NCBI GenBank assembly: GCA_963966185.1
Contig: CAWZYM010000283.1
Coordinates: 506,001 to 570,000 of the forward strand
Length of the DNA: 64,000 nt
Direction of reading: 5' to 3'
Source: Rhabditoides inermis
Taxonomy: Eukaryota; Nematoda; Chromadorea; Rhabditida; Rhabditidae
A model generated the notes under the pieces. The model worked only from the letters and a program-made list of their open reading frames with translations, ran no database searches and was not told where the DNA came from. Position 1 is the stretch's first letter; each line of letters begins with the position of its first letter. Below, in pieces: positions 1 through 21,100 of the stretch. The position numbers and the translations under genes are program-made.

Positions 1-250
1 CGCAGCGCACTAAATAAAGATTACCACCATTTTCTCAACTTTTTTGATTGCTACGATTAAGTGACGAATATGCGTCTAAATGCAGCAATAGCGAAAATGG
101 TGTAAATTTGTAACACGTGGAACATAAAAATTTATTTTTTCTGCATGATTGTTTTTTGTATTTAATTTTTTGTATTTTTTGTATTACTTATTATTACTTA
201 ATAATTACTTAACATTTAACCATCGTCGTCGCAATTGCGAGATTTCAGAC

Positions 251-856
251 ATGACCATGTCATATGCTTTGATTTGCTCAAAGTTCCGCCCTCCGCCGAA
301 ACCACCGCAAGTTGCCCTTTTTCCTCGATTCCAGGTTTGTTCTGATTTGATTCAATTTGAACAGATTATATTACTTTTTTTAAGATTTTTTTTAAAAGAT
401 TCCTAATATATTTTATGAATTCACTGAAACTTTGTTAGGAAGCCAAGATCGTTCTTCGTATCCAACTTCATTCCGTTGGAGCCGTTGTGGGTCGGCGGTT
501 CTTCCGACTGCGCCTGATGGAGGTATGTTCAATGGCCATTTGATTGCATGTTTAGATTCGCATCAAACTTTTTTGTTTATTGCAGGATGCTTTTCGTGTG
601 AACTTGTCGATTGACACGACGAACCTGCTTGTGAAGGGTCGTCGATGGATGGTAATTTAAATGTCATGCAGTTTATTTGGTTATGTTTCAGGTGACCCGT
701 TTCGTTGAATTTTTCGTCGAAGCGTATTCCACCTTCATTTCCACGGGGGAAGATCTGCAATGTAAGGTTCGTCGGCAGTGTGGTGGAGACATCGCTGAGC
801 AGAGGTGAGCATTGACGTCTACTTTGCACTACTCTGTTACCGACTGGTATTTCTTA

Positions 857-887
<31 letters not shown>

Positions 888-1182
888 TCAGTTTTGTTTT
901 TTGACGTGTCAGTGGTTATTGTATTGTAGGGACATGGAGGCTGATCAGACTCATACGATGTACCAGCGACTCGTACACGTGAACGGCAAGTTCGCAGGAC
1001 GATGCGGCTACACTAGGAGCTCCCCTGTGAGTGATATCGATTCGATCGTTTATTGTTGATGTTGTTGCTTCAGGTGTGCTCGCGTGGTGTGTACGTGAAG
1101 CTGCAGATGCACAAGAAGAAGCCAATGGAGCACCAGCGGATGAATCCTTATCATAGGTAAATCTCCGTTATCTTGTTAACGT

Positions 1183-1220
<38 letters not shown>

Positions 1221-1536
1221 CAACTGAACAACGAAACTTTTATGATGTACAGGGAAGCGCAAGTCGTGTCCAGTGTGCAGTCACAACCCCGCACTGTCGA
1301 TGATAGCGCTGCCGAGGACAAGGAGAAGGTGTTTAGTTTGTTTTATTCTTTTAATTCATTTTTTACGGTTATGTTGTTGTTTCAGGTGTGCTCGCGTAGT
1401 GTGGAGTGCATGGGGAAAGAGGCCGAGGAGAAGGACGTGAAGCTGCAGATGCCTTTCAGCGAGAAGAAGTCGGTGGAGCACCAGCGGATGAAGCCTATTC
1501 ACAGGTAAATATCCGTTATATATTTTTACGTATTCA

Positions 1537-1576
<40 letters not shown>

Positions 1577-1900
1577 CAGTAGAACAACTGAACAACGAAA
1601 CTTTTATGATGTACAGGGAAGCGCAAGTCGTGTCCAGTGTGCAGTCACAACCCCGCACTGTCGATGATAGCGCTGCCGAGGACAAGGAGAAGGTGTTTAG
1701 TTTGTTTTATTCTTTTAATTCATTTTTAACGGTCATGTTGTTGTTTCAGGTGTGCTCGCGTAGTGTGGAGTGCATGGGGAAAGAGGCCGAGGAGAAGGAC
1801 GTGAAGCTGCAGATGCCTTTCAGCGAGAAGAAGTCAGTGGAGCACCAGCAGATGAAGCCCATTCACAGGTAAATATCCGTTATATATTTTTACGTATTCA

Positions 1901-1948
<48 letters not shown>

Positions 1949-2064
1949 CAGTAGAACAACTGAACAACGAAACTTTTATGATGTACAGGGAAGCACAAGT
2001 CGTGTCCAGTGTGCAGTCACAACCCCGCACTGTCGATGATAGCGCTGCCGAGGACAAGGAGAAG
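251..2064 (+). CDS. Unrecognised multi-exon gene, 5' part of the interrupted plus-strand copy
   Basis: Eleven exons join in phase: 251-334, 439-522, 586-651, 692-804, 930-1026, 1074-1156, 1253-1328, 1386-1504, 1617-1692, 1750-1868 and 1989-2064. Acceptors are mostly TTTCAG/TTGCAG-like and donors GTRWRT-like. The start ATG at 251 lies two bases after a TTTCAG acceptor, so it may follow a trans-splice site or an intron in the leader; earlier exons outside the window cannot be excluded. The product begins MTMSYALICSKF and is basic, with a hydrophobic EFFVEAY stretch and a VHVNGKFAGRCGY segment. Exons 7-11 are tandem copies of an exon pair rich in E, K, Q and S. The gene continues at 9595 after the inverted insertion, which enlarges the intron after exon 11 to about 7.5 kb. 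I do not recognise the family. Confidence 0.6.
1253..2064 (+). repeat. Tandem exon-pair duplication with (TA)n in the intron
   Basis: A unit of about 364-372 bases is repeated. It contains a 76-base exon (EAQVVSSVQSQP...), a short intron, a 119-base exon (VCSRSVECMGKE...), and an intron holding a (TA)n tract of about 20-40 bases. Exon copies are nearly identical at the DNA level, with a few substitutions such as GCGCAAG/GCACAAG, and the introns are also nearly identical. This indicates recent duplication or ongoing homogenisation. The unit is derived from the exon at 1074-1156, which it resembles (VCSRG...EHQRM...HR). The mirrored array is at about 7112-8303, and one further unit lies at 9595-9906. 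Confidence 0.8.
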
Positions 2065-2305
2065 GTGTTTAGTTTGTTTTATTCTTTTAACTAGCGAACC
2101 AGCGAACCAAAACCTCTTCCCACATTTTCTAGGAAGAAATTTTCTTCTAACTTTTTCCCTCTTTAGATTATATTCGGCTCGCAGTTAGCTCATGATTTTT
2201 TTAATGAAAACATTATCGTAGATTTTGAATATACAGAATACTAAACGGAATGCAATGCAGATTTTCCATGGTGTTCATATTTCTATTTCGCTGATCATCT
2301 CACAT

Positions 2306-2407
2306 GACCACGTGGCGTAGTGGTGTTGCGTAGTGGCGTAGCGAGAGCGCTCTCGCTGACCAAGCACCCATGCGCAGGTTCGACTTTGGGTACCCTTGTC
2401 AAGTTTT
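2306..2407 (+). repeat. tRNA-like Pol III element (SINE or tRNA pseudogene candidate)
   Basis: TGGCGTAGTGG at 2313-2323 fits the tRNA A-box consensus TRGCNNAGTGG, and GGTTCGACTTT at 2377-2387 resembles the B box GGTTCGANTCC. They are 53 bases apart, a spacing seen in tRNAs with a long variable arm and in tRNA-derived SINEs. A TTTT run follows about 17 bases after the B box. A perfect 16-base palindrome, GCGAGAGCGCTCTCGC, lies between the boxes. I could not fold a convincing acceptor stem, so this is not called as a functional tRNA. Confidence 0.4.
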
Positions 2408-4132
2408 GTCAAGATGAAAAAACCATCCAACTGGTTCTGATCTTTGTATAACAATTCTGATGTCTCTCGTGAAAAGAGTTGATCTCTTTTGCGGGCTCAC
2501 CATAGATTCATGAAATGATTCATATTTTAGAATTTCATTCTTATGCATTGAAAATATAAAAGTTGTCATATCTTTGTTTCTTTATATGTGATCTTTTTGC
2601 TGATGGGCAGGGTGTCAAATGTGCTCTCATTTCTCTGCGCTCTCGCGCGCATATTGCTCCCACGATTCTTTCTTTCCCGCCGGCCGTCGTGTAGTCTAGC
2701 CGCTAACTAAGATTATTACTACGTGTGCTTCTTGTTTTTGGATGTATCATTACGTATTCAAGTGGTCTCTTCTAGTCCTCTCTGATTAAGAATGAAAACG
2801 CATTCACGTTTTGCTTCACAAGCTAGTGAATTTCACGGACCAATTTGGCATAACTAATTTGTCTAGTATCATATTGCTGTATTTTAATGAGTTTACAATT
2901 TCTTATCTACTGTCTAATGTCGGTCTGTCGAATTGGTAGGTAGTGATTGCGCGAGCTGACAAACTGTGCGCGTGTGTCTCCGTTACTGTGCCATCTTCTC
3001 TCGGCAAATCGATATTTGTGTTCACTGCCCCGCCACCCCTATTCGCACTGCCCTATTCATTCGCGCGGTCAGACAGGCAAACAGCGATTGTTGTGCGTGT
3101 TTTTCCCTCACTGGGCTCTCCTCTCTCGGAAATTCGATAAGCATCGCCCCATTCATTCGCGCCCGTTATTCTCAAATCCTATATTTTTCTGAAAGTGTTT
3201 ACAACTTTTTCACTTGGTATCACACGAATTTATAGGCACCAATCTCTCCCTCTCTCTGTTCAAATCGGTTCCGTGTGTTTGTGTGTTCGTTACCCAAACA
3301 CAATTCTTCACATTGTCTTGTTCATCGCGCGAATGTCGTTCACGATCATGTTTTTACTTATAATTCTGATTCAGGTGTGACGATCGTGTTCAATTTCTAC
3401 AAATATATATATGCTATATTTCTACCGTCATTTTCTATATTCCTTCGATACCAGCTGCTGGTTGCTCTGGACCGCACAAATTTTCTTGTTTTCTTTGTGA
3501 GAGGACGGAAGACATGTGTGGGCTAGAGCAATCAGCGGCACTTCACATCTGAATTGAAAAGGTATGTGATGTTTTGACGGGGCGTGACGAGATATGAAAA
3601 TTTGATTATAATTGCATTGAAAATATTATAATTTGTTATACACAAAAACAGATTTTAGGTTTTAGGTGGACGTTGGTGCCTCTCTTCCAATGCGGACTTT
3701 GACAACAATATGAGATATGACTATATAGCAATGTGAATTGTTATCATTTGACCCTAGTCGCTCTAATCGCTGGATCTGCTAGAAGATAACGAGAGGGTTC
3801 TAGTGGTTCGTCTCTTTTTTCAGCTGCTACATAAATCTTTGTCAGATGTGTTTCACTCCTGGTCTCTGTAATACTCCCTTTCTGTTTCATCTCTATCAAT
3901 CATTTCTGTCATGTGTTCGTTCATTTCATGCGTAAGTCATGTCGAACAGGTGTCTGATTACCTTTTTTTCTAACAAAAAATCAAAGGTCTCTGGTGGCAA
4001 AATGGAGCATATGCGATATGAGATAAGCATGCTATTTTGAGATTAGCATATTCTAAATAGTGGTAAACATTTTCCCATGATCCAAATCATTCACTTAATT
4101 TTACAAAAGTAACACATCGAATAACCTTCACA
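2408..4132. other. Gene-poor flank of the Nopp140-like gene, inverted copy
   Basis: I see no spliceable coding exon on either strand. The stretch is AT-rich, with a CG-richer patch at about 2940-3300 that contains short diverged repeats of ATTCATTCGCGC and CACTGCCC-type words. The reading frames there overlap in all three frames and have no splice logic. The mirrored plus-strand copy of this flank is 12886-14610. Confidence 0.6.
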
Positions 4133-4138
4133 TTTATT
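4133..4138 (-). terminator. Polyadenylation signal AATAAA
   Basis: TTTATT on the plus strand reads AATAAA on the minus strand, 14 bases after the stop codon of the minus-strand Nopp140-like gene. The distance is short, but it is the first canonical hexamer there. Confidence 0.6.
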
Positions 4139-4151
4139 GTGTTCACAACGT

Positions 4152-5812
4152 TTAAAACATGCTACGTTTACGCCAGTCAAAATATGTGATATTCTTGGGA
4201 GCCTCATCCTCGGAATCAGAATCCGACGAAGAAGAGTCCTTCTTGGCGGGCGCAGCCTTGACCGTGGTGGCCTTCACGAGAGCAGCCTGAAAAATCAAAT
4301 ACATCATGAAATGCAAATAAGACACTCTAATGTAACCTACTTACCTTTTTGGGAGCCTCATCCTCGGAGTCCGAATCCTTCTTGGCGGGCGCAGCCTTAG
4401 CTGGGGTCGCCTTCACGGGAGCAGCCTTCTTGGGGGCCACATCCTCAGAATCGGAATCCGACGAAGAAAAGTCCTTCTTGGCGGGCGCAGCCTTGACCGT
4501 GGTGGCCTTCACGGGAGCAGCCTGAAAAATCAAATACATCATGAAATGCAAATAATACACACTCAAATGCAACCTATTCACCTTTTTGGGAGCCTCTTTC
4601 TCGGAGTCCGAATCCTTCTTGGCGGGCGCAGCCTTAGCAGGGGTCGCCTTCACGGGAGCAGCCTTCTTGGGGGCCACATCCTCAGAATCGGAATCCGACG
4701 AAGAAAAGTCCTTCTTGGCGGGCGCAGCCTTGACCGTGGTGGCCTTCACGAGAGCAGCCTGAAAAATCAAATACATCATGAAATGCAAATAAGACACTCT
4801 AATGTAACCTATTCACCTTTTTGGGAGCCTCATTCTCGGAGTCCGAATCCTTCTTGGCGGGCGCAGCCTTAGCAGGGGTCGCCTTCACGGGAGCAGCCTT
4901 CTTGGGGGCCTCATCCTCAGAATCGGAATCCGACGAAGAAGAGTCCTTCTTGGCGGGCGCAGCCTTGACCGTGGTGGCCTTCACGGGAGCAGCCTGAAAA
5001 ATCAAATACATCATGAAATGCAAATAAGACACTCTAATGTAACCTATTCACCTTTTTGGGAGCCTCATCCTCGGAGTCCGAATCCTTCTTGGCGGGCGCA
5101 GCCTTAGCTGGGGTCGCCTTCACGGGAGCAGCCTTCTTGGGGGCCACATCCTCAGAATCGGAATCCGACGAAGAAGAGTCCTTCTTGGCGGGCGCAGCCT
5201 TGACCGTGGTGGCCTTCACGGGAGCAGCCTGAAAAATCAAATACATCATGAAATGCAAATAATACACACTCAAATGCAACCTATTCACCTTTTTGGGAGC
5301 CTCATTCTCGGAGTCCGAATCCTTCTTGGCGGGCGCAGCCTTAGCAGGGGTCGCCTTCACGGGAGCAGCCTTCTTGGGGGCCACATCCTCAGAATCGGAA
5401 TCCGACGAAGAAGAGTCCTTCTTGGCGGGCGCAGCCTTGACCGTGGTGGCCTTCACGGGAGCAGCCTGAAAAATCAAATACATCATGAAATGCAAATAAT
5501 ACACACTCAAATGCAACCTATTCACCTTTTTGGGAGCCTCATTCTCGGAGTCCGAATCCTTCTTGGCGGGCGCAGCCTTAGCAGGGGTCGCCTTCACGGG
5601 AGCAGCCTTCTTGGGGGCCTCATCCTCAGAATCGGAATCCGACGAAGAAGAGTCCATCTTGGCGGGCGCAGCCTTGACCGTGGTGGCCTTCACGGGAGCA
5701 GCCTGAAAAATCAAATACATCATGAAATGCAAATAAGACACAGACTTGTACAGACTTAAAATATCCTTACAGCGTGCTTGACACGTTGTTGGACTCTTGC
5801 ACGCAAAATAAC
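4152..5812 (-). CDS. Nopp140/nucleolin-like acidic-basic repeat protein, inverted copy
   Basis: On the minus strand, a 42-base exon (VILRARVQQRVKHA) is followed by six nearly identical 177-base exons and a last exon ending at 4152. Each 59-residue exon reads AAPVKATTVKAAPAKKD, then SSSSDSDSED, then (E/V)APKKAAPVKATPAKAAPAKKDSDSE(N/D/K)EAPKK. Alternating Lys/Ala/Pro blocks and Ser/Asp/Glu blocks are the hallmark of nucleolar chaperones of the Nopp140 group; the serine-acid runs are typical casein kinase 2 sites. The last exon replaces the final lysine with NITYFDWRKRSMF and a stop. I see no C-terminal domain of the SRP40 kind, so the call rests on composition alone. Histone H1-like or other disordered nuclear proteins are alternatives. 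No start codon is evident upstream of the VILRAR exon. Confidence 0.55.
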
Positions 5813-5865
5813 CTACAATTGGAAATGAATTAAATTCAATTGATGAAAAATTATCATTATTCAAA

Positions 5866-7227
5866 TTAATCATGGTTCATAGATGATATGCGCTCAAAGG
5901 CGATAATGTATTCGATCGGCTCAAGGCCATATAGTTCACAAACGGAAACAATAAATTCATTGAATATCGAGGAAACACATGACAATCGGCGAAAGGCATC
6001 TTGCAGTTGAACGCGTACAGCACCTCCCTTCCAACGGGCAACAGAGCACTAAAAATGGGTAATAACACGGTAGTATAGGTACGTCATAAAATTTTTGACT
6101 CACATTGATAGACGCTATGAGGCTGTTGATATTCTCGACGCATGTGAAAAGAGAAGGGATGATGAACTTCACAAGTTGAGAGCAATTCCGAATCGTTGAT
6201 ATCACATCGATCTGAAAGATATAATCGTTAAACAATATTGCTGGTTCGGCTAATTGAATACATAAAAAGAACTTTAAAACCTAATTTGATTAAAAATAAA
6301 GAAAGAGTGCATGAAATCGGAGAGTGGCAATATAAGAAAAAAATATTTCATTGATTGTTTTCATTGTACCCATCTGTTAAATGTTTTCCCCTTCCCTTTT
6401 CTTTCGCTTTTTGAATGCATCGGGGGGCTGCCGCCCCCCGCACCCCCCGCTTTTCTCTCGCTTTTTTAATGCATCGGGGGGCTGCCGCCCCCCGCACCCC
6501 CCGCTTTTCTCTCGCTTTTTTAATGCATCGGGGGGCTGCCGCCCCCCGCACCCCCCGCTTTTCTCTCGCTTTTTTATTGCATCGGGGGGCTGCCGCCCCC
6601 CGCACCCCCCGCTTTTCTCTCGCTTTTTTTATTGCATCGGGGGGCTGCCGCCCCCCGCACCCCCCGCTTTTCTCTCGCTTTTTTAATGCATCGGGGGGCT
6701 GCCGCCCCCCGCACCCCCCGCTTTTTTTATTGCATCGGGGAGCTGCCGCCCCCCGCACCCCCCGCATCACTTGTTTTGATCCACTATCTCCGCCATCCAA
6801 TCTCTCTCTCTCTCTCTCTCTCCCTCTCTCTCTCTCTCTACACTCTTCTCTAACTGTCTGTCTCTTTCCCAATGGATCGTCTTCCCACTAACAGGTCAGA
6901 TTTGCATTTGACCATACATACATTGCATCTCTCACGGCTCACACAAATAGCCGCTAGTAAAGTGTTCTCAAGTTCTGATCCGGCCAGCGGCAACCGGGAC
7001 ACATTTTGAACACATATAACCGATGACATCACGTAACTTTTTCATACACGCAATTTAATATTCCCAAAAGCTAAAAGAAGGTTAATTAAAAGAATAAAAC
7101 AAACTAAACACCTTCTCCTTGTCCTCGGCAGCGCTATCATCGACAGTGCGGGGTTGTGACTGCACACTGGACACGACTTGTGCTTCCCTGTACATCATAA
7201 AAGTTTCGTTGTTCAGTTGTTCTACTG

Positions 7228-7275
<48 letters not shown>

Positions 7276-7599
7276 TGAATACGTAAAAATATATAACGGA
7301 TATTTACCTGTGAATGGGCTTCATCTGCTGGTGCTCCACTGACTTCTTCTCGCTGAAAGGCATCTGCAGCTTCACGTCCTTCTCCTCGGCCTCTTTCCCC
7401 ATGCACTCCACACTACGCGAGCACACCTGAAACAACAACATGACCGTTAAAAATGAATTAAAAGAATAAAACAAACTAAACACCTTCTCCTTGTCCTCGG
7501 CAGCGCTATCATCGACAGTGCGGGGTTGTGACTGCACACTGGACACGACTTGTGCTTCCCTGTACATCATAAAAGTTTCGTTGTTCAGTTGTTCTACTG

Positions 7600-7657
<58 letters not shown>

Positions 7658-7981
7658 TGAATACGTAAAAATATATAACGGATATTTACCTGTGAATGGG
7701 CTTCATCTGCTGGTGCTCCACTGACTTCTTCTCGCTGAAAGGCATCTGCAGCTTCACGTCCTTCTCCTCGGCCTCTTTCCCCATGCACTCCACACTACGC
7801 GAGCACACCTGAAACAACAACATGACCGTTAAAAATGAATTAAAAGAATAAAACAAACTAAACACCTTCTCCTTGTCCTCGGCAGCGCTATCATCGACAG
7901 TGCGGGGTTGTGACTGCACACTGGACACGACTTGCGCTTCCCTGTACATCATAAAAGTTTCGTTGTTCAGTTGTTCTACTG

Positions 7982-8019
<38 letters not shown>

Positions 8020-8335
8020 TGAATACGTAAAAATATATAACGGATATTTACCTGTGAATAGGCTTCATCCGCTGGTGCTCCACCGACTTCTTCTCGCTGA
8101 AAGGCATCTGCAGCTTCACGTCCTTCTCCTCGGCCTCTTTCCCCATGCACTCCACACTACGCGAGCACACCTGAAACAACAACATAACCGTAAAAAATGA
8201 ATTAAAAGAATAAAACAAACTAAACACCTTCTCCTTGTCCTCGGCAGCGCTATCATCGACAGTGCGGGGTTGTGACTGCACACTGGACACGACTTGCGCT
8301 TCCCTGTACATCATAAAAGTTTCGTTGTTCAGTTG

Positions 8336-8373
<38 letters not shown>

Positions 8374-8668
8374 ACGTTAACAAGATAACGGAGATTTACC
8401 TATGATAAGGATTCATCCGCTGGTGCTCCATTGGCTTCTTCTTGTGCATCTGCAGCTTCACGTACACACCACGCGAGCACACCTGAAGCAACAACATCAA
8501 CAATAAACGATCGAATCGATATCACTCACAGGGGAGCTCCTAGTGTAGCCGCATCGTCCTGCGAACTTGCCGTTCACGTGTACGAGTCGCTGGTACATCG
8601 TATGAGTCTGATCAGCCTCCATGTCCCTACAATACAATAACCACTGACACGTCAAAAAACAAAACTGA

Positions 8669-8699
<31 letters not shown>

Positions 8700-9305
8700 T
8701 AAGAAATACCAGTCGGTAACAGAGTAGTGCAAAGTAGACGTCAATGCTCACCTCTGCTCAGCGATGTCTCCACCACACTGCCGACGAACCTTACATTGCA
8801 GATCTTCCCCCGTGGAAATGAAGGTGGAATACGCTTCGACGAAAAATTCAACGAAACGGGTCACCTGAAACATAACCAAATAAACTGCATGACATTTAAA
8901 TTACCATCCATCGACGACCCTTCACAAGCAGGTTCGTCGTGTCAATCGACAAGTTCACACGAAAAGCATCCTGCAATAAACAAAAAAGTTTGATGCGAAT
9001 CTAAACATGCAATCAAATGGCCATTGAACATACCTCCATCAGGCGCAGTCGGAAGAACCGCCGACCCACAACGGCTCCAACGGAATGAAGTTGGATACGA
9101 AGAACGATCTTGGCTTCCTAACAAAGTTTCAGTGAATTCATAAAATATATTAGGAATCTTTTAAAAAAAATCTTAAAAAAAGTAATATAATCTGTTCAAA
9201 TTGAATCAAATCAGAACAAACCTGGAATCGAGGAAAAAGGGCAACTTGCGGTGGTTTCGGCGGAGGGCGGAACTTTGAGCAAATCAAAGCATATGACATG
9301 GTCAT
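5866..9305 (-). CDS. Same unrecognised gene, complete copy inside the inverted block
   Basis: Read on the minus strand, this copy has the same start (9305) and the first eight exons mirrored at 9556-x. After further exon pairs it reaches an exon ending at 7112, then exons 6211-6104 and 6048-5866, ending in TAA. The exons total 1479 bases, giving 492 residues, with every junction in phase. The last two exons encode IDVISTIRN... and CSVARWKGGAVRVQLQ..., ending MNHD. They contain hydrophobic segments but no motif I can name. A short similarity between the N-terminal part (RLRLMEDAFRVNLS) and the C-terminal part (VRVQLQDAFRRLS) hints at a duplicated domain. Of the two copies this is the one whose exons are not split by an insertion. 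Its 3' neighbour on the same strand is the Nopp140-like gene. Function is unknown. Confidence 0.6.
6416..6764 (+). repeat. 54-bp G/C-run minisatellite, seven copies
   Basis: Seven units start at TGCATCGGGG (6416, 6470, 6524, 6578, 6633, 6687, 6731) with a 54-base period; the sixth unit is shortened to 44 bases. Each unit has GGGGGG, then GCTGCC, then two or three C6 runs, then a CTTTTCTCTCGC pyrimidine tract. The G6 and C6 runs can pair as a hairpin, and the C-run strand offers four or more G-runs on the opposite strand for quadruplex formation. It lies upstream of the 6211-6104 exon, inside an intron of the minus-strand gene. A (CT)n tract follows at about 6800-6840. Reading frames through it (RGAAAPRTPRFSLAF repeats) are repeat translations and not a gene. 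Confidence 0.85.
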
Positions 9306-9594
9306 GTCTGAAATCTCGCAATTGCGACGACGATGGTTAAATGTTAAGTAATTATTAAGTAATAATAAGTAATACAAAAAATACAAAAAATTAAATACAA
9401 AAAACAATCATGCAGAAAAAATAAATTTTTATGTTCCACGTGTTACAAATTTACACCATTTTCGCTATTGCTGCATTTAGACGCATATTCGTCACTTAAT
9501 CGTAGCAATCAAAAAAGTTGAGAAAATGGTGGTAATCTTTATTTAGTGCGCTGCGCGCACTAATTCATTTTTAACGGTCATGTTGTTGTTTCAG

Positions 9595-9744
9595 GTGTGC
9601 TCGCGTAGTGTGGAGTGCATGGGGAAAGAGGCCGAGGAGAAGGACGTGAAGCTGCAGATGCCTTTCAGCGAGAAGAAGTCAGTGGAGCACCAGCAGATGA
9701 AGCCCATTCACAGGTAAATATCCGTTATATATTTTTACGTATTC

Positions 9745-9790
<46 letters not shown>

Positions 9791-11152
9791 CAGTAGAACA
9801 ACTGAACAACGAAACTTTTATGATGTACAGGGAAGCACAAGTCGTGTCCAGTGTGCAGTCACAACCCCGCACTGTCGATGATAGCGCTGCCGAGGACAAG
9901 GAGAAGGTGTTTAGTTTGTTTTATTCTTTTAATTAACCTTCTTTTAGCTTTTGGGAATATTAAATTGCGTGTATGAAAAAGTTACGTGATGTCATCGGTT
10001 ATATGTGTTCAAAATGTGTCCCGGTTGCCGCTGGCCGGATCAGAACTTGAGAACACTTTACTAGCGGCTATTTGTGTGAGCCGTGAGAGATGCAATGTAT
10101 GTATGGTCAAATGCAAATCTGACCTGTTAGTGGGAAGACGATCCATTGGGAAAGAGACAGACAGTTAGAGAAGAGTGTAGAGAGAGAGAGAGAGGGAGAG
10201 AGAGAGAGAGAGAGAGATTGGATGGCGGAGATAGTGGATCAAAACAAGTGATGCGGGGGGTGCGGGGGGCGGCAGCTCCCCGATGCAATAAAAAAAGCGG
10301 GGGGTGCGGGGGGCGGCAGCCCCCCGATGCATTAAAAAAGCGAGAGAAAAGCGGGGGGTGCGGGGGGCGGCAGCCCCCCGATGCAATAAAAAAAGCGAGA
10401 GAAAAGCGGGGGGTGCGGGGGGCGGCAGCCCCCCGATGCAATAAAAAAGCGAGAGAAAAGCGGGGGGTGCGGGGGGCGGCAGCCCCCCGATGCATTAAAA
10501 AAGCGAGAGAAAAGCGGGGGGTGCGGGGGGCGGCAGCCCCCCGATGCATTAAAAAAGCGAGAGAAAAGCGGGGGGTGCGGGGGGCGGCAGCCCCCCGATG
10601 CATTCAAAAAGCGAAAGAAAAGGGAAGGGGAAAACATTTAACAGATGGGTACAATGAAAACAATCAATGAAATATTTTTTTCTTATATTGCCACTCTCCG
10701 ATTTCATGCACTCTTTCTTTATTTTTAATCAAATTAGGTTTTAAAGTTCTTTTTATGTATTCAATTAGCCGAACCAGCAATATTGTTTAACGATTATATC
10801 TTTCAGATCGATGTGATATCAACGATTCGGAATTGCTCTCAACTTGTGAAGTTCATCATCCCTTCTCTTTTCACATGCGTCGAGAATATCAACAGCCTCA
10901 TAGCGTCTATCAATGTGAGTCAAAAATTTTATGACGTACCTATACTACCGTGTTATTACCCATTTTTAGTGCTCTGTTGCCCGTTGGAAGGGAGGTGCTG
11001 TACGCGTTCAACTGCAAGATGCCTTTCGCCGATTGTCATGTGTTTCCTCGATATTCAATGAATTTATTGTTTCCGTTTGTGAACTATATGGCCTTGAGCC
11101 GATCGAATACATTATCGCCTTTGAGCGCATATCATCTATGAACCATGATTAA
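9595..11152 (+). CDS. Unrecognised gene, 3' part of the interrupted plus-strand copy
   Basis: Exons 9595-9713, 9831-9906, 10807-10914 and 10970-11152 (TAA at 11150) continue the frame left at 2064. If the intron 2065-9594 is removed, this gene has the same exon content as the minus-strand copy: four copies of the EAQVVSS exon and three of the VCSRSVECMG exon. Whether it is still spliced across an intron containing a complete inverted copy of itself is an open question. Such a transcript could form a very long hairpin, because the intron is complementary to most exons on either side. A candidate in-phase donor within the last exon (GCT|GTACGC near 10999) could join to the exon at 11206, but that is speculation. 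Confidence 0.5.
10254..10602 (-). repeat. 54-bp G/C-run minisatellite, mirrored copy
   Basis: This is the reverse complement of the repeat at 6416-6764, with the same seven units and the same shortened one. It lies in the intron between the exons at 9831-9906 and 10807-10914 of the plus-strand gene. Identical unit number in both copies argues that the inverted duplication is younger than any change in the minisatellite. Confidence 0.85.
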
Positions 11153-11205
11153 TTTGAATAATGATAATTTTTCATCAATTGAATTTAATTCATTTCCAAT
11201 TGTAG

Positions 11206-12866
11206 GTTATTTTGCGTGCAAGAGTCCAACAACGTGTCAAGCACGCTGTAAGGATATTTTAAGTCTGTACAAGTCTGTGTCTTATTTGCATTTCATGATG
11301 TATTTGATTTTTCAGGCTGCTCCCGTGAAGGCCACCACGGTCAAGGCTGCGCCCGCCAAGATGGACTCTTCTTCGTCGGATTCCGATTCTGAGGATGAGG
11401 CCCCCAAGAAGGCTGCTCCCGTGAAGGCGACCCCTGCTAAGGCTGCGCCCGCCAAGAAGGATTCGGACTCCGAGAATGAGGCTCCCAAAAAGGTGAATAG
11501 GTTGCATTTGAGTGTGTATTATTTGCATTTCATGATGTATTTGATTTTTCAGGCTGCTCCCGTGAAGGCCACCACGGTCAAGGCTGCGCCCGCCAAGAAG
11601 GACTCTTCTTCGTCGGATTCCGATTCTGAGGATGTGGCCCCCAAGAAGGCTGCTCCCGTGAAGGCGACCCCTGCTAAGGCTGCGCCCGCCAAGAAGGATT
11701 CGGACTCCGAGAATGAGGCTCCCAAAAAGGTGAATAGGTTGCATTTGAGTGTGTATTATTTGCATTTCATGATGTATTTGATTTTTCAGGCTGCTCCCGT
11801 GAAGGCCACCACGGTCAAGGCTGCGCCCGCCAAGAAGGACTCTTCTTCGTCGGATTCCGATTCTGAGGATGTGGCCCCCAAGAAGGCTGCTCCCGTGAAG
11901 GCGACCCCAGCTAAGGCTGCGCCCGCCAAGAAGGATTCGGACTCCGAGGATGAGGCTCCCAAAAAGGTGAATAGGTTACATTAGAGTGTCTTATTTGCAT
12001 TTCATGATGTATTTGATTTTTCAGGCTGCTCCCGTGAAGGCCACCACGGTCAAGGCTGCGCCCGCCAAGAAGGACTCTTCTTCGTCGGATTCCGATTCTG
12101 AGGATGAGGCCCCCAAGAAGGCTGCTCCCGTGAAGGCGACCCCTGCTAAGGCTGCGCCCGCCAAGAAGGATTCGGACTCCGAGAATGAGGCTCCCAAAAA
12201 GGTGAATAGGTTACATTAGAGTGTCTTATTTGCATTTCATGATGTATTTGATTTTTCAGGCTGCTCTCGTGAAGGCCACCACGGTCAAGGCTGCGCCCGC
12301 CAAGAAGGACTTTTCTTCGTCGGATTCCGATTCTGAGGATGTGGCCCCCAAGAAGGCTGCTCCCGTGAAGGCGACCCCTGCTAAGGCTGCGCCCGCCAAG
12401 AAGGATTCGGACTCCGAGAAAGAGGCTCCCAAAAAGGTGAATAGGTTGCATTTGAGTGTGTATTATTTGCATTTCATGATGTATTTGATTTTTCAGGCTG
12501 CTCCCGTGAAGGCCACCACGGTCAAGGCTGCGCCCGCCAAGAAGGACTTTTCTTCGTCGGATTCCGATTCTGAGGATGTGGCCCCCAAGAAGGCTGCTCC
12601 CGTGAAGGCGACCCCAGCTAAGGCTGCGCCCGCCAAGAAGGATTCGGACTCCGAGGATGAGGCTCCCAAAAAGGTAAGTAGGTTACATTAGAGTGTCTTA
12701 TTTGCATTTCATGATGTATTTGATTTTTCAGGCTGCTCTCGTGAAGGCCACCACGGTCAAGGCTGCGCCCGCCAAGAAGGACTCTTCTTCGTCGGATTCT
12801 GATTCCGAGGATGAGGCTCCCAAGAATATCACATATTTTGACTGGCGTAAACGTAGCATGTTTTAA
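11206..12866 (+). CDS. Nopp140/nucleolin-like acidic-basic repeat protein, plus-strand copy
   Basis: Exons are 11206-11247, 11316-11492, 11553-11729, 11790-11966, 12025-12201, 12260-12436, 12497-12673 and 12732-12866 (TAA at 12864). All internal exons are 177 bases and phase 0, so copy number can change without a frameshift. The introns (58-68 bases) are almost identical, ending GATTTTTCAG. From the VILRAR exon to the stop the product has 412 residues. Small differences separate the units (KMD in the first; DFSSSD in the fifth and sixth; SEN, SED or SEK before EAPKK). The start codon is unresolved: only 53 bases, with an acceptor but no ATG-bearing exon, separate this gene from the upstream stop. 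It may use an exon of the upstream gene or be trans-spliced. Confidence 0.55.
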
Positions 12867-12879
12867 ACGTTGTGAACAC

Positions 12880-12885
12880 AATAAA
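12880..12885 (+). terminator. Polyadenylation signal AATAAA
   Basis: AATAAA lies 14 bases after the TAA of the plus-strand Nopp140-like gene and mirrors the signal at 4133-4138. Confidence 0.6.
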
Positions 12886-14610
12886 TGTGAAGGTTATTCG
12901 ATGTGTTACTTTTGTAAAATTAAGTGAATGATTTGGATCATGGGAAAATGTTTACCACTATTTAGAATATGCTAATCTCAAAATAGCATGCTTATCTCAT
13001 ATCGCATATGCTCCATTTTGCCACCAGAGACCTTTGATTTTTTGTTAGAAAAAAAGGTAATCAGACACCTGTTCGACATGACTTACGCATGAAATGAACG
13101 AACACATGACAGAAATGATTGATAGAGATGAAACAGAAAGGGAGTATTACAGAGACCAGGAGTGAAACACATCTGACAAAGATTTATGTAGCAGCTGAAA
13201 AAAGAGACGAACCACTAGAACCCTCTCGTTATCTTCTAGCAGATCCAGCGATTAGAGCGACTAGGGTCAAATGATAACAATTCACATTGCTATATAGTCA
13301 TATCTCATATTGTTGTCAAAGTCCGCATTGGAAGAGAGGCACCAACGTCCACCTAAAACCTAAAATCTGTTTTTGTGTATAACAAATTATAATATTTTCA
13401 ATGCAATTATAATCAAATTTTCATATCTCGTCACGCCCCGTCAAAACATCACATACCTTTTCAATTCAGATGTGAAGTGCCGCTGATTGCTCTAGCCCAC
13501 ACATGTCTTCCGTCCTCTCACAAAGAAAACAAGAAAATTTGTGCGGTCCAGAGCAACCAGCAGCTGGTATCGAAGGAATATAGAAAATGACGGTAGAAAT
13601 ATAGCATATATATATTTGTAGAAATTGAACACGATCGTCACACCTGAATCAGAATTATAAGTAAAAACATGATCGTGAACGACATTCGCGCGATGAACAA
13701 GACAATGTGAAGAATTGTGTTTGGGTAACGAACACACAAACACACGGAACCGATTTGAACAGAGAGAGGGAGAGATTGGTGCCTATAAATTCGTGTGATA
13801 CCAAGTGAAAAAGTTGTAAACACTTTCAGAAAAATATAGGATTTGAGAATAACGGGCGCGAATGAATGGGGCGATGCTTATCGAATTTCCGAGAGAGGAG
13901 AGCCCAGTGAGGGAAAAACACGCACAACAATCGCTGTTTGCCTGTCTGACCGCGCGAATGAATAGGGCAGTGCGAATAGGGGTGGCGGGGCAGTGAACAC
14001 AAATATCGATTTGCCGAGAGAAGATGGCACAGTAACGGAGACACACGCGCACAGTTTGTCAGCTCGCGCAATCACTACCTACCAATTCGACAGACCGACA
14101 TTAGACAGTAGATAAGAAATTGTAAACTCATTAAAATACAGCAATATGATACTAGACAAATTAGTTATGCCAAATTGGTCCGTGAAATTCACTAGCTTGT
14201 GAAGCAAAACGTGAATGCGTTTTCATTCTTAATCAGAGAGGACTAGAAGAGACCACTTGAATACGTAATGATACATCCAAAAACAAGAAGCACACGTAGT
14301 AATAATCTTAGTTAGCGGCTAGACTACACGACGGCCGGCGGGAAAGAAAGAATCGTGGGAGCAATATGCGCGCGAGAGCGCAGAGAAATGAGAGCACATT
14401 TGACACCCTGCCCATCAGCAAAAAGATCACATATAAAGAAACAAAGATATGACAACTTTTATATTTTCAATGCATAAGAATGAAATTCTAAAATATGAAT
14501 CATTTCATGAATCTATGGTGAGCCCGCAAAAGAGATCAACTCTTTTCACGAGAGACATCAGAATTGTTATACAAAGATCAGAACCAGTTGGATGGTTTTT
14601 TCATCTTGAC
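12886..14610. other. Gene-poor flank of the Nopp140-like gene, plus-strand copy
   Basis: This is the mirror of 2408-4132. I see no coding exon with splice support. It ends at the tRNA-like element. Confidence 0.6.
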
Positions 14611-14712
14611 AAAACTTGACAAGGGTACCCAAAGTCGAACCTGCGCATGGGTGCTTGGTCAGCGAGAGCGCTCTCGCTACGCCACTACGCAACACCACTA
14701 CGCCACGTGGTC
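14611..14712 (-). repeat. tRNA-like Pol III element, mirrored copy
   Basis: This is the reverse complement of 2306-2407 with the same A box (14695-14705, minus strand) and B box (14631-14641). It lies about 215 bases inside the end of the duplicated locus at 14927. Confidence 0.4.
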
Positions 14713-14927
14713 ATGTGAGATGATCAGCGAAATAGAAATATGAACACCATGGAAAATCTGCATTGCATTCCGTTTAGTATTCTGTATATTCAAAATCTAC
14801 GATAATGTTTTCATTAAAAAAATCATGAGCTAACTGCGAGCCGAATATAATCTAAAGAGGGAAAAAGTTAGAAGAAAATTTCTTCCTAGAAAATGTGGGA
14901 AGAGGTTTTGGTTCGCTGGTTCGCTAG

Positions 14928-18126: not shown

Positions 18127-21100
18127 ATGGAGGACGACTGGTCGGCTCCGATCCTGAAAAACGACTGTCTCTTTTCGTCGGCGGCCACCGGCGACGATGC
18201 AACACAGGTGATTTTTTGTTGTTGGAGTTTTTATATTTGCTGTTGTTGTTTTGAGCTGTTTTAATGGTTGATCATAATGGTATGCAGACAGACTGAGATG
18301 AATGAGTTCACGTTTGTGACAAGAGTTTATGGACGCGTTTATGTTTCGCTACCGATTATTAGATGAACTGGGTGTTATGGAAATGTGATTGGATTAAACA
18401 TTTGGTTATAAGTTGAAACATTGCATACATACAATCACATGTTTCACCTCCACAACAATATTAATGTAAGTTAAACTTATAATAACGATTCGGTGTGTTT
18501 GAATTGCTTAATCTCAATCGTTCGCGCTTCCCGCGGGCCCGCGGCCAAGATTTCCTCACCGTAGGATTGTGCGTACTAGCAGATCACCCATATTGCTAAC
18601 ATTGTGTGTCGGAATCAGATTGATATTCCTTTCTGTTTCGGTTGGCAAATCGCAATGATTCCGGATAATTGATTGATTGATTGATTGATTGTTTGCAGTT
18701 CGCGTCGCTGTCGGACGGTCTGTCTCTGGAGACGAGCAGCACGTACCTGGATCTGGGCGGGGGCGGACGACTCGCCGGCGGCGGAGGAGACGTCAAGACC
18801 GAGCTCGTCGACGATACCAGCGGTGCGTGCACGAAAATGGAATGTGGAATCAAATACACAAAACCTTGCAACTTGCAATGACACAACGTGCTGATCGTAG
18901 AATGCGCGCGCACTTCGCACATCGCATTATGTCAGTTTGTCATCTGTAGCACGTATGGAAACGGCGGGGTGTTTGACGTCAACTAACAGTTTTATCGGTT
19001 TTTGGCAAGTTTCAAGTTACAACGAGGTAATCGAATACAATTTATGCTGAAGCAGTTCAGCCCCATTTTTTAAAACGAGTTTACTGGCACATCTGTCATA
19101 CTCCCCAAAAATGTACACATTTTGAAACTATTTTTTACTCGGTTAGAAAGCCTTAATCAGACAAGAGTCCCTGGGCTGTCCGGTATTCGAGAAACACAGA
19201 GAGTGGTGATACATGGTTGGTTGACAGCTCTGACAGCTCTAGAGATTAACAGGGATTGATGGATTGTTACAAGTTGTTTCTTTCCTTCTCCTCCCTCCCC
19301 CCCTCTCCCTATCTCTTTCTTTTTGTGATCTCGCTGCGGTGCGGTGTGCGGACTAGTTCCTGTTTCTTTTTTGCCCTCTAAATTTCGGCTAACCGACATC
19401 TTTTCGGAGCCGCAACGACGTGCCGTCTCCTAGTAGCGCTGGAGCCATTTGCGCTCTCCACATAAAGCTCGCGCCGTAAAGGCACTTATGGATAGTGACA
19501 GGGATGGGATGGGGAGGTGAATGTGAGGGGGCGAGAAGGAGACGAATGAGAGAGACGGTAGCGACGACGCCTCCACTGATGTACCCACTCCCACCTGCAC
19601 CTGCATTGCATCACTTGACGCATCGTCTCACGCTCAGAATTCCGAAGTGTGCCCCCGCCGTCACCATATCGATGCAGAATGCAGTGCTTCTCTGGGGGGA
19701 ACAGTTGTTATCACCCACTCTCGCTGCTTTTCGATCACGGATTGGACTGTCTCGCCTCATTTTTCGGATTTTTTCCCGCCTTGCATGTCTCGTGCAGTGA
19801 AGCGGCGTTGTTGCTCTATCTCGCATGTTTACGTTCATGCGTTAAGCGAAGCCGGCCGCGCGAGCTTATCAGTGGTGATGAAGTTGTGATATGGAACAAG
19901 TGAGTGGAGAGAAAGAGAGAGGGAAGAGAGAGAGGAGTGCACGGGGCCAGATAGGTGCGTTCGCTGCTTCGCTCCACTTTGCTCCTGCAAAACGGATCGA
20001 TCGCTGAACTGTGTGTTATCGGTAGATATCACTACGGCAAGTCGGCAAGAAGCGAACATGACATAAGAAAAAGTCGTAAAAAAAGTATAATCTCAGCAGA
20101 TCTAATGAACGATGCACATTGAATGCGGGAAATGTGGTGAAATGGCGCGGAGCGTTGATGTCGATTTGGATCTCATCAGAACGACGATAATAGATTTAGG
20201 GTGTGGTGTGATAAGCATGGTTTTATCGTAGTGTTATCATGTTCGTCGTCGGACATCGGTACACATACACTTTGAAACTATTAACTTTTCGATGCACTCG
20301 ATTCGTCCTCTTTCTCCATCGTCTACGGTCTACGCGCTACTGATCGTGAGCTGAGAGGGCGGCACCCCTTTGGACCATCTCTCGCGGTAGCTCTCGCCTA
20401 TACCGTTTCCCCCGTTTCGCTCGGCTCCGGGCAGTCCAGGCAGTGCTGATAAGACCTTCTCTCGCGCGGGGCTCGGGGGTGTGTCCGCTCACCTGCCCTG
20501 CTTCACGCGCGAACCGTCCCGCCATCCTGCGGTTTATTGGATCTACTCTCTTTCTCAATCGACGACAAGAGGACATCAGCGATATTCTCTGCGAGCATGT
20601 TTGACGTCTCGATGTTTGACGACCTGGACTTTGATTTCGGCACCTCTGCCCCGACCGGCGCTTCGGTGCCGCACCCCAACTCGCTCAGTGTGCCGACCAT
20701 TGCCGGCGTTCACATCAAGACGGAGGTTGCAGGTACGCTCGCTGTCAGTCGCTCATTCTTCGCATTTCTGCAAGCTGCGTTGTTGTTGTGGGGCGATCGC
20801 ATTCCGAGAACTGTTATCAATGGCTCCGGTCCGGCGCCGCTCGATTTCTAGACTCTCGCATCATGCGTTTTTGTGTAGTTCCGGGAGATGTGAGGAGGAT
20901 GAATCACTCCTTGACTACTGTTCGAATCGGCCAGTCTGCCATCCTGCCATGGAGCATGTGAACATGAGCGCAAACAACTTTTTCGCGACCTGGAAATTTC
21001 AATTTCGCTCTGTTTGAGAGTTCGTATCGTAGGATCTCGATCGGCGGCGGCGAGTTTTTGCGGATCACAAACCGCGTCGCACAATACACGCTTATTGTTG

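What the first reader, a model, noticed from the sequence alone, without database searches (positions are those of the whole stretch)
1..14927. A locus inserted, inverted, into its own intron
What looks like an A-B-A'-B' inverted repeat is most simply one plus-strand locus (1-2090, 9561-14927) with a complete reverse-complement copy of itself (2091-9560) in an intron. The broken intron resumes at the same base, with a TAA triplet on each side. Exact resumption fits capture of a copied fragment at a break better than a simple foldback or strand-switch chimera, which would not return to its point of departure. Near identity implies a very recent event.
Basis: seen in the sequence. Interest (0 to 1): 0.8.

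Follow-up and report, generated by a model that had tools for sequence, protein, structure and literature searches.

The report
Helitron transposon inserted into itself
The strange mirror-image duplication is a rolling-circle jumping gene (a Helitron) that landed, backwards, inside another copy of itself; it is a clean, very young example of a known kind of event.

Summary
In detail: window 2091-9563 is a 7,473-bp reverse-complement copy of the unit around it (1-2090 plus 9564-14927), and the host intron resumes at the next base. But the "locus" is a transposable element. Its termini occur at 22 and 20 places in this 172.6-Mb eukaryotic genome. In all 15 copies that I paired end to end it sits between A and T without target-site duplication; the "TAA on each side" is the element's own end plus a chance TTA in the target. 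A 22-kb copy has an uninterrupted 2,852-residue frame with Helitron Rep and PIF1-type helicase, preceded by Ulp1-type domains; the window unit is an internally deleted derivative. So this is Helitron self-insertion in opposite orientation, not break capture. A 5-bp deletion found only in insert and host copy (13 other right ends lack it, 5 cannot be scored) makes the host copy, or its direct parent, the likely source. Self-insertion is already described for fungal and maize Helitrons, and 5'-end hairpins for fungal ones. Less ordinary: a perfect 21-nt palindrome instead of 5'-TC, and a very young family with an apparently intact coding copy. The genome search became unreachable, so some counts are missing.

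The parts
1..2090 (+). Outer (host) Helitron copy, left part; its first 8 bases (TTAGTGCG) lie just left of the window
2091..9563 (-). Inserted Helitron copy, 7,473 bp, opposite orientation; CTAG end at 2091-2094, palindromic TTAG end at 9543-9563
9564..14927 (+). Outer (host) Helitron copy, right part, ending ...GGTTCGCTAG, followed by T
2090..2091 (.). Insertion junction 1: target A joined to the element's CTAG end
9563..9564 (.). Insertion junction 2: element ...CTAA joined to target TTCATTT; TAA 9561-9563 belongs to the element
9543..9563 (-). Perfect 21-nt terminal palindrome TTAGTGCGC-GCA-GCGCACTAA of the insert (9-bp stem, 3-nt loop)
   Evidence: z -4.5, 0 of 200 shuffles as good
251..2090 (+). 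Cargo gene of the outer copy, left part (continues at 9564-9905), predicted by hand: short GT-AG introns, exon pairs repeated in 364-bp tandem units; the insertion lies in one of its introns
   Evidence: (spliced on the inner copy; 13 exons, in frame)
11273..11273 (+). Internal-deletion junction of the window-type unit (outer copy): about 14.5 kb net of the 22-kb copy, with nearly all of RepHel, is missing; the start of the RepHel frame is retained just upstream. The right side lies in the 237-bp array, so the exact partner is ambiguous
11277..12826 (+). Tandem 237-bp units with exons encoding Lys/Ala/Ser-Asp-rich repeats, SRP40/Nopp140-like (likeness recalled; no family search of it was answered), outer copy

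Best explanation
A non-autonomous, internally deleted Helitron was copied by rolling-circle transposition and the copy integrated, in reverse orientation, between A and T in an intron of the cargo gene of another copy of the same element, most likely its own parent copy. The enzyme would be supplied by full-length relatives such as the 22-kb copy on C516, which has an uninterrupted RepHel frame. Shown: element identity, termini, A^T target, no duplication, exact empty site, RepHel motifs, shared private deletion. Inferred: that this RepHel moved it, that the intermediate was a peeled or circular copy, and that the donor was the host copy itself (same or sister chromatid).
For: Left terminus at 22 exact places, right terminus at 20 exact places of the genome. 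The base before TTAG is A at 21 of 22 exact left ends and the base after CTAG is T at 20 of 20 exact right ends; 15 of 15 hand-paired two-ended copies are A^T. The empty intron is present in other copies. The C516 copy has a 2,852-aa frame without stops matching PIF1 (1.5e-58), Helitron_like_N (6.7e-36) and Peptidase_C48 (5.6e-27); HUH, tyrosine-pair and helicase motifs align with Helitron-type proteins. A 5-bp deletion: 2 of 20 right ends (insert and host copy) have it, 13 do not, 5 lack the site. The CTAG-side flank is 80% A+T over 20 bp (19 ends) against 66% on the other side (22 ends) and 51% for the window; Helraiser prefers A+T-rich targets, most on the 3' side (PMC4778049, passages).
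Against: The 5' end is TTAG with a palindrome, not the canonical TC, and the predicted 3' hairpin is weak (z -1.5, 13 of 200 shuffles as good). One of 22 exact left ends (C95:17056) is not preceded by A. How many copies share the internal deletion could not be counted (genome search did not complete), so a copy of the same subtype that lacks an exact right end in the assembly could be the donor. No reads were available to confirm the junctions.
Confidence: 0.95

Rival explanations
1. A copied fragment of a unique locus was captured at a double-strand break in its own intron.
For: Exact resumption and near identity.
Against: Both junctions are the termini of a multi-copy element and A^T is the target in 15 of 15 paired copies; break capture would not pick the same ends each time.
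Confidence: 0.02
2. Assembly or amplification chimera.
For: Near-identical repeats are assembly-prone; several copies lie in contigs of 23-43 kb.
Against: The junctions fall exactly on element termini at a legal A^T target; the composite lies inside a 3.05-Mb contig with different flanking sequence on its two sides (uniqueness of those flanks was not tested); the two copies differ in (TA)n lengths.
Confidence: 0.03
3. A DNA transposon with a 3-bp TAA/TTA target duplication (PIF/Harbinger-like; its duplication is recalled).
For: TTA on both sides of the insert.
Against: TTA on the right in only 2 of 15 paired copies; no exact inverted word longer than 6 bp between the first 40 and last 150 bases; the coding copy has Rep and PIF1-type helicase.
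Confidence: 0.01
4. Helitron insertion, but the donor was another copy of the same deleted subtype rather than the host copy.
For: A young family with several deletion subtypes; copies on C72 and C371 are of similar length (7,368 bp between termini), their interiors not fetched.
Against: The right ends of C72 and C371 lack the 5-bp deletion; of 15 scorable right ends only the insert and its host have it.
Confidence: 0.25

Closest known systems
Helitron (RepHel rolling-circle) transposons, e.g. Helraiser/Helibat1 (PMC4778049, passages)
   Same: 3'-CTAG followed by T, insertion into AT, no target duplication, HUH Rep plus helicase, A+T-rich surroundings most marked on the 3' side
   Different: 5' terminus TTAG in a perfect 21-nt palindrome instead of TC; no strong hairpin 11 nt from the 3' end; N-terminal Ulp1-type domains; 22 kb
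FoHeli Helitrons of Fusarium oxysporum (PMC5148889, passages)
   Same: One case of a non-autonomous Helitron nested in a putative autonomous one; insertion in opposite orientation is proposed there to explain reversed genes; a hairpin at the 5' terminus, in FoHeli3-5 without one at the 3' end
   Different: FoHelis have asymmetric terminal inverted repeats; no exact inverted word longer than 6 bp was found here; other termini and insertion contexts
Nested maize Helitrons (PMC3288121, passages)
   Same: Preference to insert near or inside other Helitrons, giving multiple termini; loss of internal sequence
   Different: Plant elements, autonomous forms with RPA-type domains; no Ulp1-type domain mentioned in the passages seen
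Ulp1-bearing RepHel proteins of Ancylostoma duodenale (P0002, P0004)
   Same: Domain order Peptidase_C48, Helitron_like_N, PIF1; 36% and 35% identity over Rep and helicase
   Different: A search with residues 1-1500 of our frame, which hold the C48 stretches, found no homologue at E 0.001, these two included

Membership tests
Helitron | Rep (HUH, two tyrosines) fused to a PIF1-type helicase in the autonomous relative | tested here: met
   (C516 copy, L058:101-8656:-); the window units themselves lack it
Helitron | Insertion between A and T without target-site duplication | tested here: met
   15 of 15 copies paired end to end by hand; 21 of 22 left and 20 of 20 right exact ends
Helitron | 3'-CTRR terminus | tested here: met
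   CTAG then T at 20 of 20 exact right ends; the search pattern itself ended in CTAG, and the one further hit, with 2 mismatches (L053), ends CTGT
Helitron (canonical, Helitron1) | 5'-TC terminus | tested here: not met
   TTAG
Helitron (canonical, Helitron1) | Hairpin about 10-12 nt from the 3' end | tested here: inconclusive
   A predicted stem 13 nt from the CTAG end is weak (z -1.5); the strong palindrome is at the other end
Helitron2/Helentron | Asymmetric terminal inverted repeats | tested here: not met
   Longest exact inverted word 6 bp between first 40 and last 150 bases; imperfect repeats were not tested
Helentron | C-terminal AP-type endonuclease domain | tested here: not met
   No such Pfam match in the 2,852-aa frame at E 0.01; the rest of the 22-kb copy was not scanned
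Helitron | Rolling-circle mechanism with circular intermediate | not testable with these tools
   needs DNA from the organism

The most novel reading that the evidence does not exclude
This family is a Helitron lineage with canonical A^T/CTAG insertion in which the strong terminal palindrome sits at the end upstream of RepHel instead of at the 3' terminator, so either the termini are used with reversed polarity relative to the gene or the hairpin serves initiation. One copy whose palindrome is extended by fold-back (C95:17047-17079) would be a trace of single-stranded snap-back at that end. The family also re-enters its own copies, a parent receiving its own daughter in reverse.
Probability: 0.2. 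Interest if true: 0.45.

Novelty: new member of a known kind. Interest (0 to 1): 0.33.

Why it matters
It gives a base-exact, very young case of Helitron self-insertion in opposite orientation, with parent and daughter recognisable by a private deletion, in a genome that still holds an apparently intact RepHel copy. Such composites are the proposed source of Helitrons with multiple termini and of reversed gene orientation. A young family with an intact coding copy is a practical place to look for natural Helitron activity in an animal. It also warns against reading nested repeats as break-repair events.

Tried and rejected
Considered and rejected: PIF/Harbinger-type TAA duplication (TTA on both sides in only 2 of 15 copies); break capture; chimera. 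A spliced model of the cargo gene (266 residues of it) gave no Pfam family at its cut-off (one sub-threshold hit at E 0.13) and no homologue at E 1 (110 candidates), so its origin is unknown. Residues 1-1500 of the RepHel frame gave no homologue at E 0.001 (1,318 candidates). No tRNA by ARAGORN and no Rfam family at the gathering score in the window. PADLOC gave two hits of 28-30 bits to candidate defence models, taken as shared helicase motifs. Literature: one search found no paper; one search listed two papers, not opened; led to PMC5148889 (passages); led to PMC4778049 and PMC3288121 (passages); PMC9741609 (from; passages) describes deubiquitinase domains in Helentrons, related in spirit only; one search was seen as a listing only. 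The host species was not identified; nematode is a guess from intron ends (recalled consensus) and the hookworm relatives. The polarity of the element (which end is 3') is not settled: RepHel direction and the A+T-rich flank favour CTAG as 3'; the hairpin plus CTAA favours the other end. On re-check I lowered the interest of the novel reading from 0.5 to 0.45, because hairpins at the 5' end are already described for Fusarium Helitrons.
Full report
Observation. The geometry is as described. Self-comparison pairs 1-2090 with 9555-7458 and 2073-7460 with 14944-9561, both inverted. Aligned end to end, insert and rejoined host copy differ by 1 substitution and 15 gap columns in 7,467, all in or next to three (TA)n tracts. 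The base-exact insert is 2091-9563; the host reads CTTTTAA^TTCATTTTTA across it.

What it is. A 701-base piece of the unit gave 205 matches, many of them tandem units or (TA)n; those longer than about 500 bases lie at about 20 places in the window's own genome (172.6 Mb, 599 contigs) at 93-100% identity. The left terminus GTGCGCGCAGCGCACTAAATAAAG occurs at 22 places exactly and in 2 further hits with 3 mismatches, one of which overlaps an exact hit. The right terminus ...GGTTCGCTAG occurs at 20 places exactly and in 1 hit with 2 mismatches. Three of the 22 left ends (L025, L028, L029) share only the first 62-105 bases and so look like sister elements, leaving 19 of this family. Some places look like one site in two contigs: C34 and C96 share a left flank, C57 and C58, and C305 and C306, share right flanks.

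Boundaries and target. Exact left ends are preceded by ATTA in 21 of 22 and TTTA in 1; exact right ends are followed by T in 20 of 20. I paired 15 copies by hand whose two ends lie on one contig in one orientation; single ends and the composites on C95 and C69:323,982-335,560 were left out. The flanks are A and T in 15 of 15, and TTA recurs on the right side in 2 of 15. So TTA is the start of the element and there is no target duplication. The unoccupied target of the insert, the corresponding intron, is intact in the insert itself and in the 10 other places named under the observation check.

Coding copy. The copy on C516 spans 22,022 bases from GTGC to CTAG, 22,025 with TTA. Its frame L058:101-8656:- has 2,852 residues and no stop. 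Pfam finds Peptidase_C48 (three stretches), Helitron_like_N, PIF1 and Pif1_2B. I aligned it with 13 proteins chosen from the 120 listed of 303 hits. PHxH is present in 13 of 13, both tyrosines of YxxxY in 12 of 13 (not P0018), GKT or GKTx of the Walker motif in 12 of 13 by the form GxGKT or GCGKT and in P0018 as GTGKT, and GDxxQxxP in 13 of 13; P0002 does not align at the TALSRV position. Nearest hits by score are proteins named for Ephemera danica (34% identity), Ancylostoma duodenale (36% and 35%) and the pseudoscorpion Cordylochernes (32%). The two hookworm proteins and an unnamed one (P0103) have the order C48, Rep, helicase; a maize one (P0044) has C48 last. The window unit matches the C516 copy on both arms and lacks about 14.5 kb net between them; other copies carry other internal deletions.

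Age and parentage. Of 19 family left ends compared without gaps over 850 bases (the three sister ends left out), 14 are identical, 2 differ by one base and 3 go out of register as indels would. Of 19 right ends over 1,400 bases (L037 left out as too short), 12 are identical, 1 differs by one base, 4 carry a shared deletion of about 740 bp and 2, the window copies, a 5-bp deletion. The family is therefore very young. The 5-bp deletion, about 700 bases from the right end, is present in insert and host copy, absent in 13 other right ends (two of which may be one site), and not scorable in 5. The plain reading is that the host copy, or a copy directly ancestral to it, gave rise to the insert.

How it works. 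By what is known of Helitrons (Helraiser, PMC4778049, passages), Rep nicks one end, the helicase unwinds, a circle can form, and the copy is joined into an AT target without duplication. All steps before the final structure are inferred here. Two polarities of the element are possible. RepHel direction and the A+T-rich flank at the CTAG side (80% against 66%) favour CTAG as 3'. The strong 21-nt palindrome (z -4.5) lies at the other end, where canonical elements have TC and no hairpin; Fusarium Helitrons with a 5' hairpin are known (PMC5148889, passages).

What is known. Self-insertion is discussed for Fusarium Helitrons, including opposite orientation (PMC5148889, passages), and nesting for maize (PMC3288121, passages). 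Searches for Helitron with nematode and RepHel and with Pristionchus were seen as listings, with passages of one paper. I did not meet this family there, but that is no exhaustive search. I file it as a new member of a known kind.

Limits. No reads were available.

Noticed in passing
window 30810-64000: A long array of a 371-bp satellite (72.4, 5.0 and 11.3 copies in three blocks) fills the right half of the window.
   Followed up: no
L018 (C95:15556-18579), about 1470-1530: A second Helitron copy abuts position 9702 of another copy, with its terminal palindrome extended by fold-back to a 15-bp stem; the junction is not the usual A^T.
   Followed up: partly
L031 (C69:327420-330443), about 1390-1510: Composite: element 3472-4870, then about 20213-20326, then a copy that starts at element base 7.
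   Followed up: partly
L058:101-8656 (minus strand): RepHel frame with three Ulp1/C48-type stretches by Pfam; residues 1-1500 have no homologue detected.
   Followed up: partly
window 251-2090 and 9564-9905 (outer copy): Cargo gene with exon pairs multiplied in 364-bp tandem units; the number of units appears to vary between copies; no homologue detected.
   Followed up: partly
L025, L028, L029: Different sequence behind the same 62-105 terminal bases, pointing to sister Helitron families.
   Followed up: no
L067 (C41:151000-160600): 5,000 of 9,601 bases read N, gap or withheld stretch, next to a Helitron right end.
   Followed up: no
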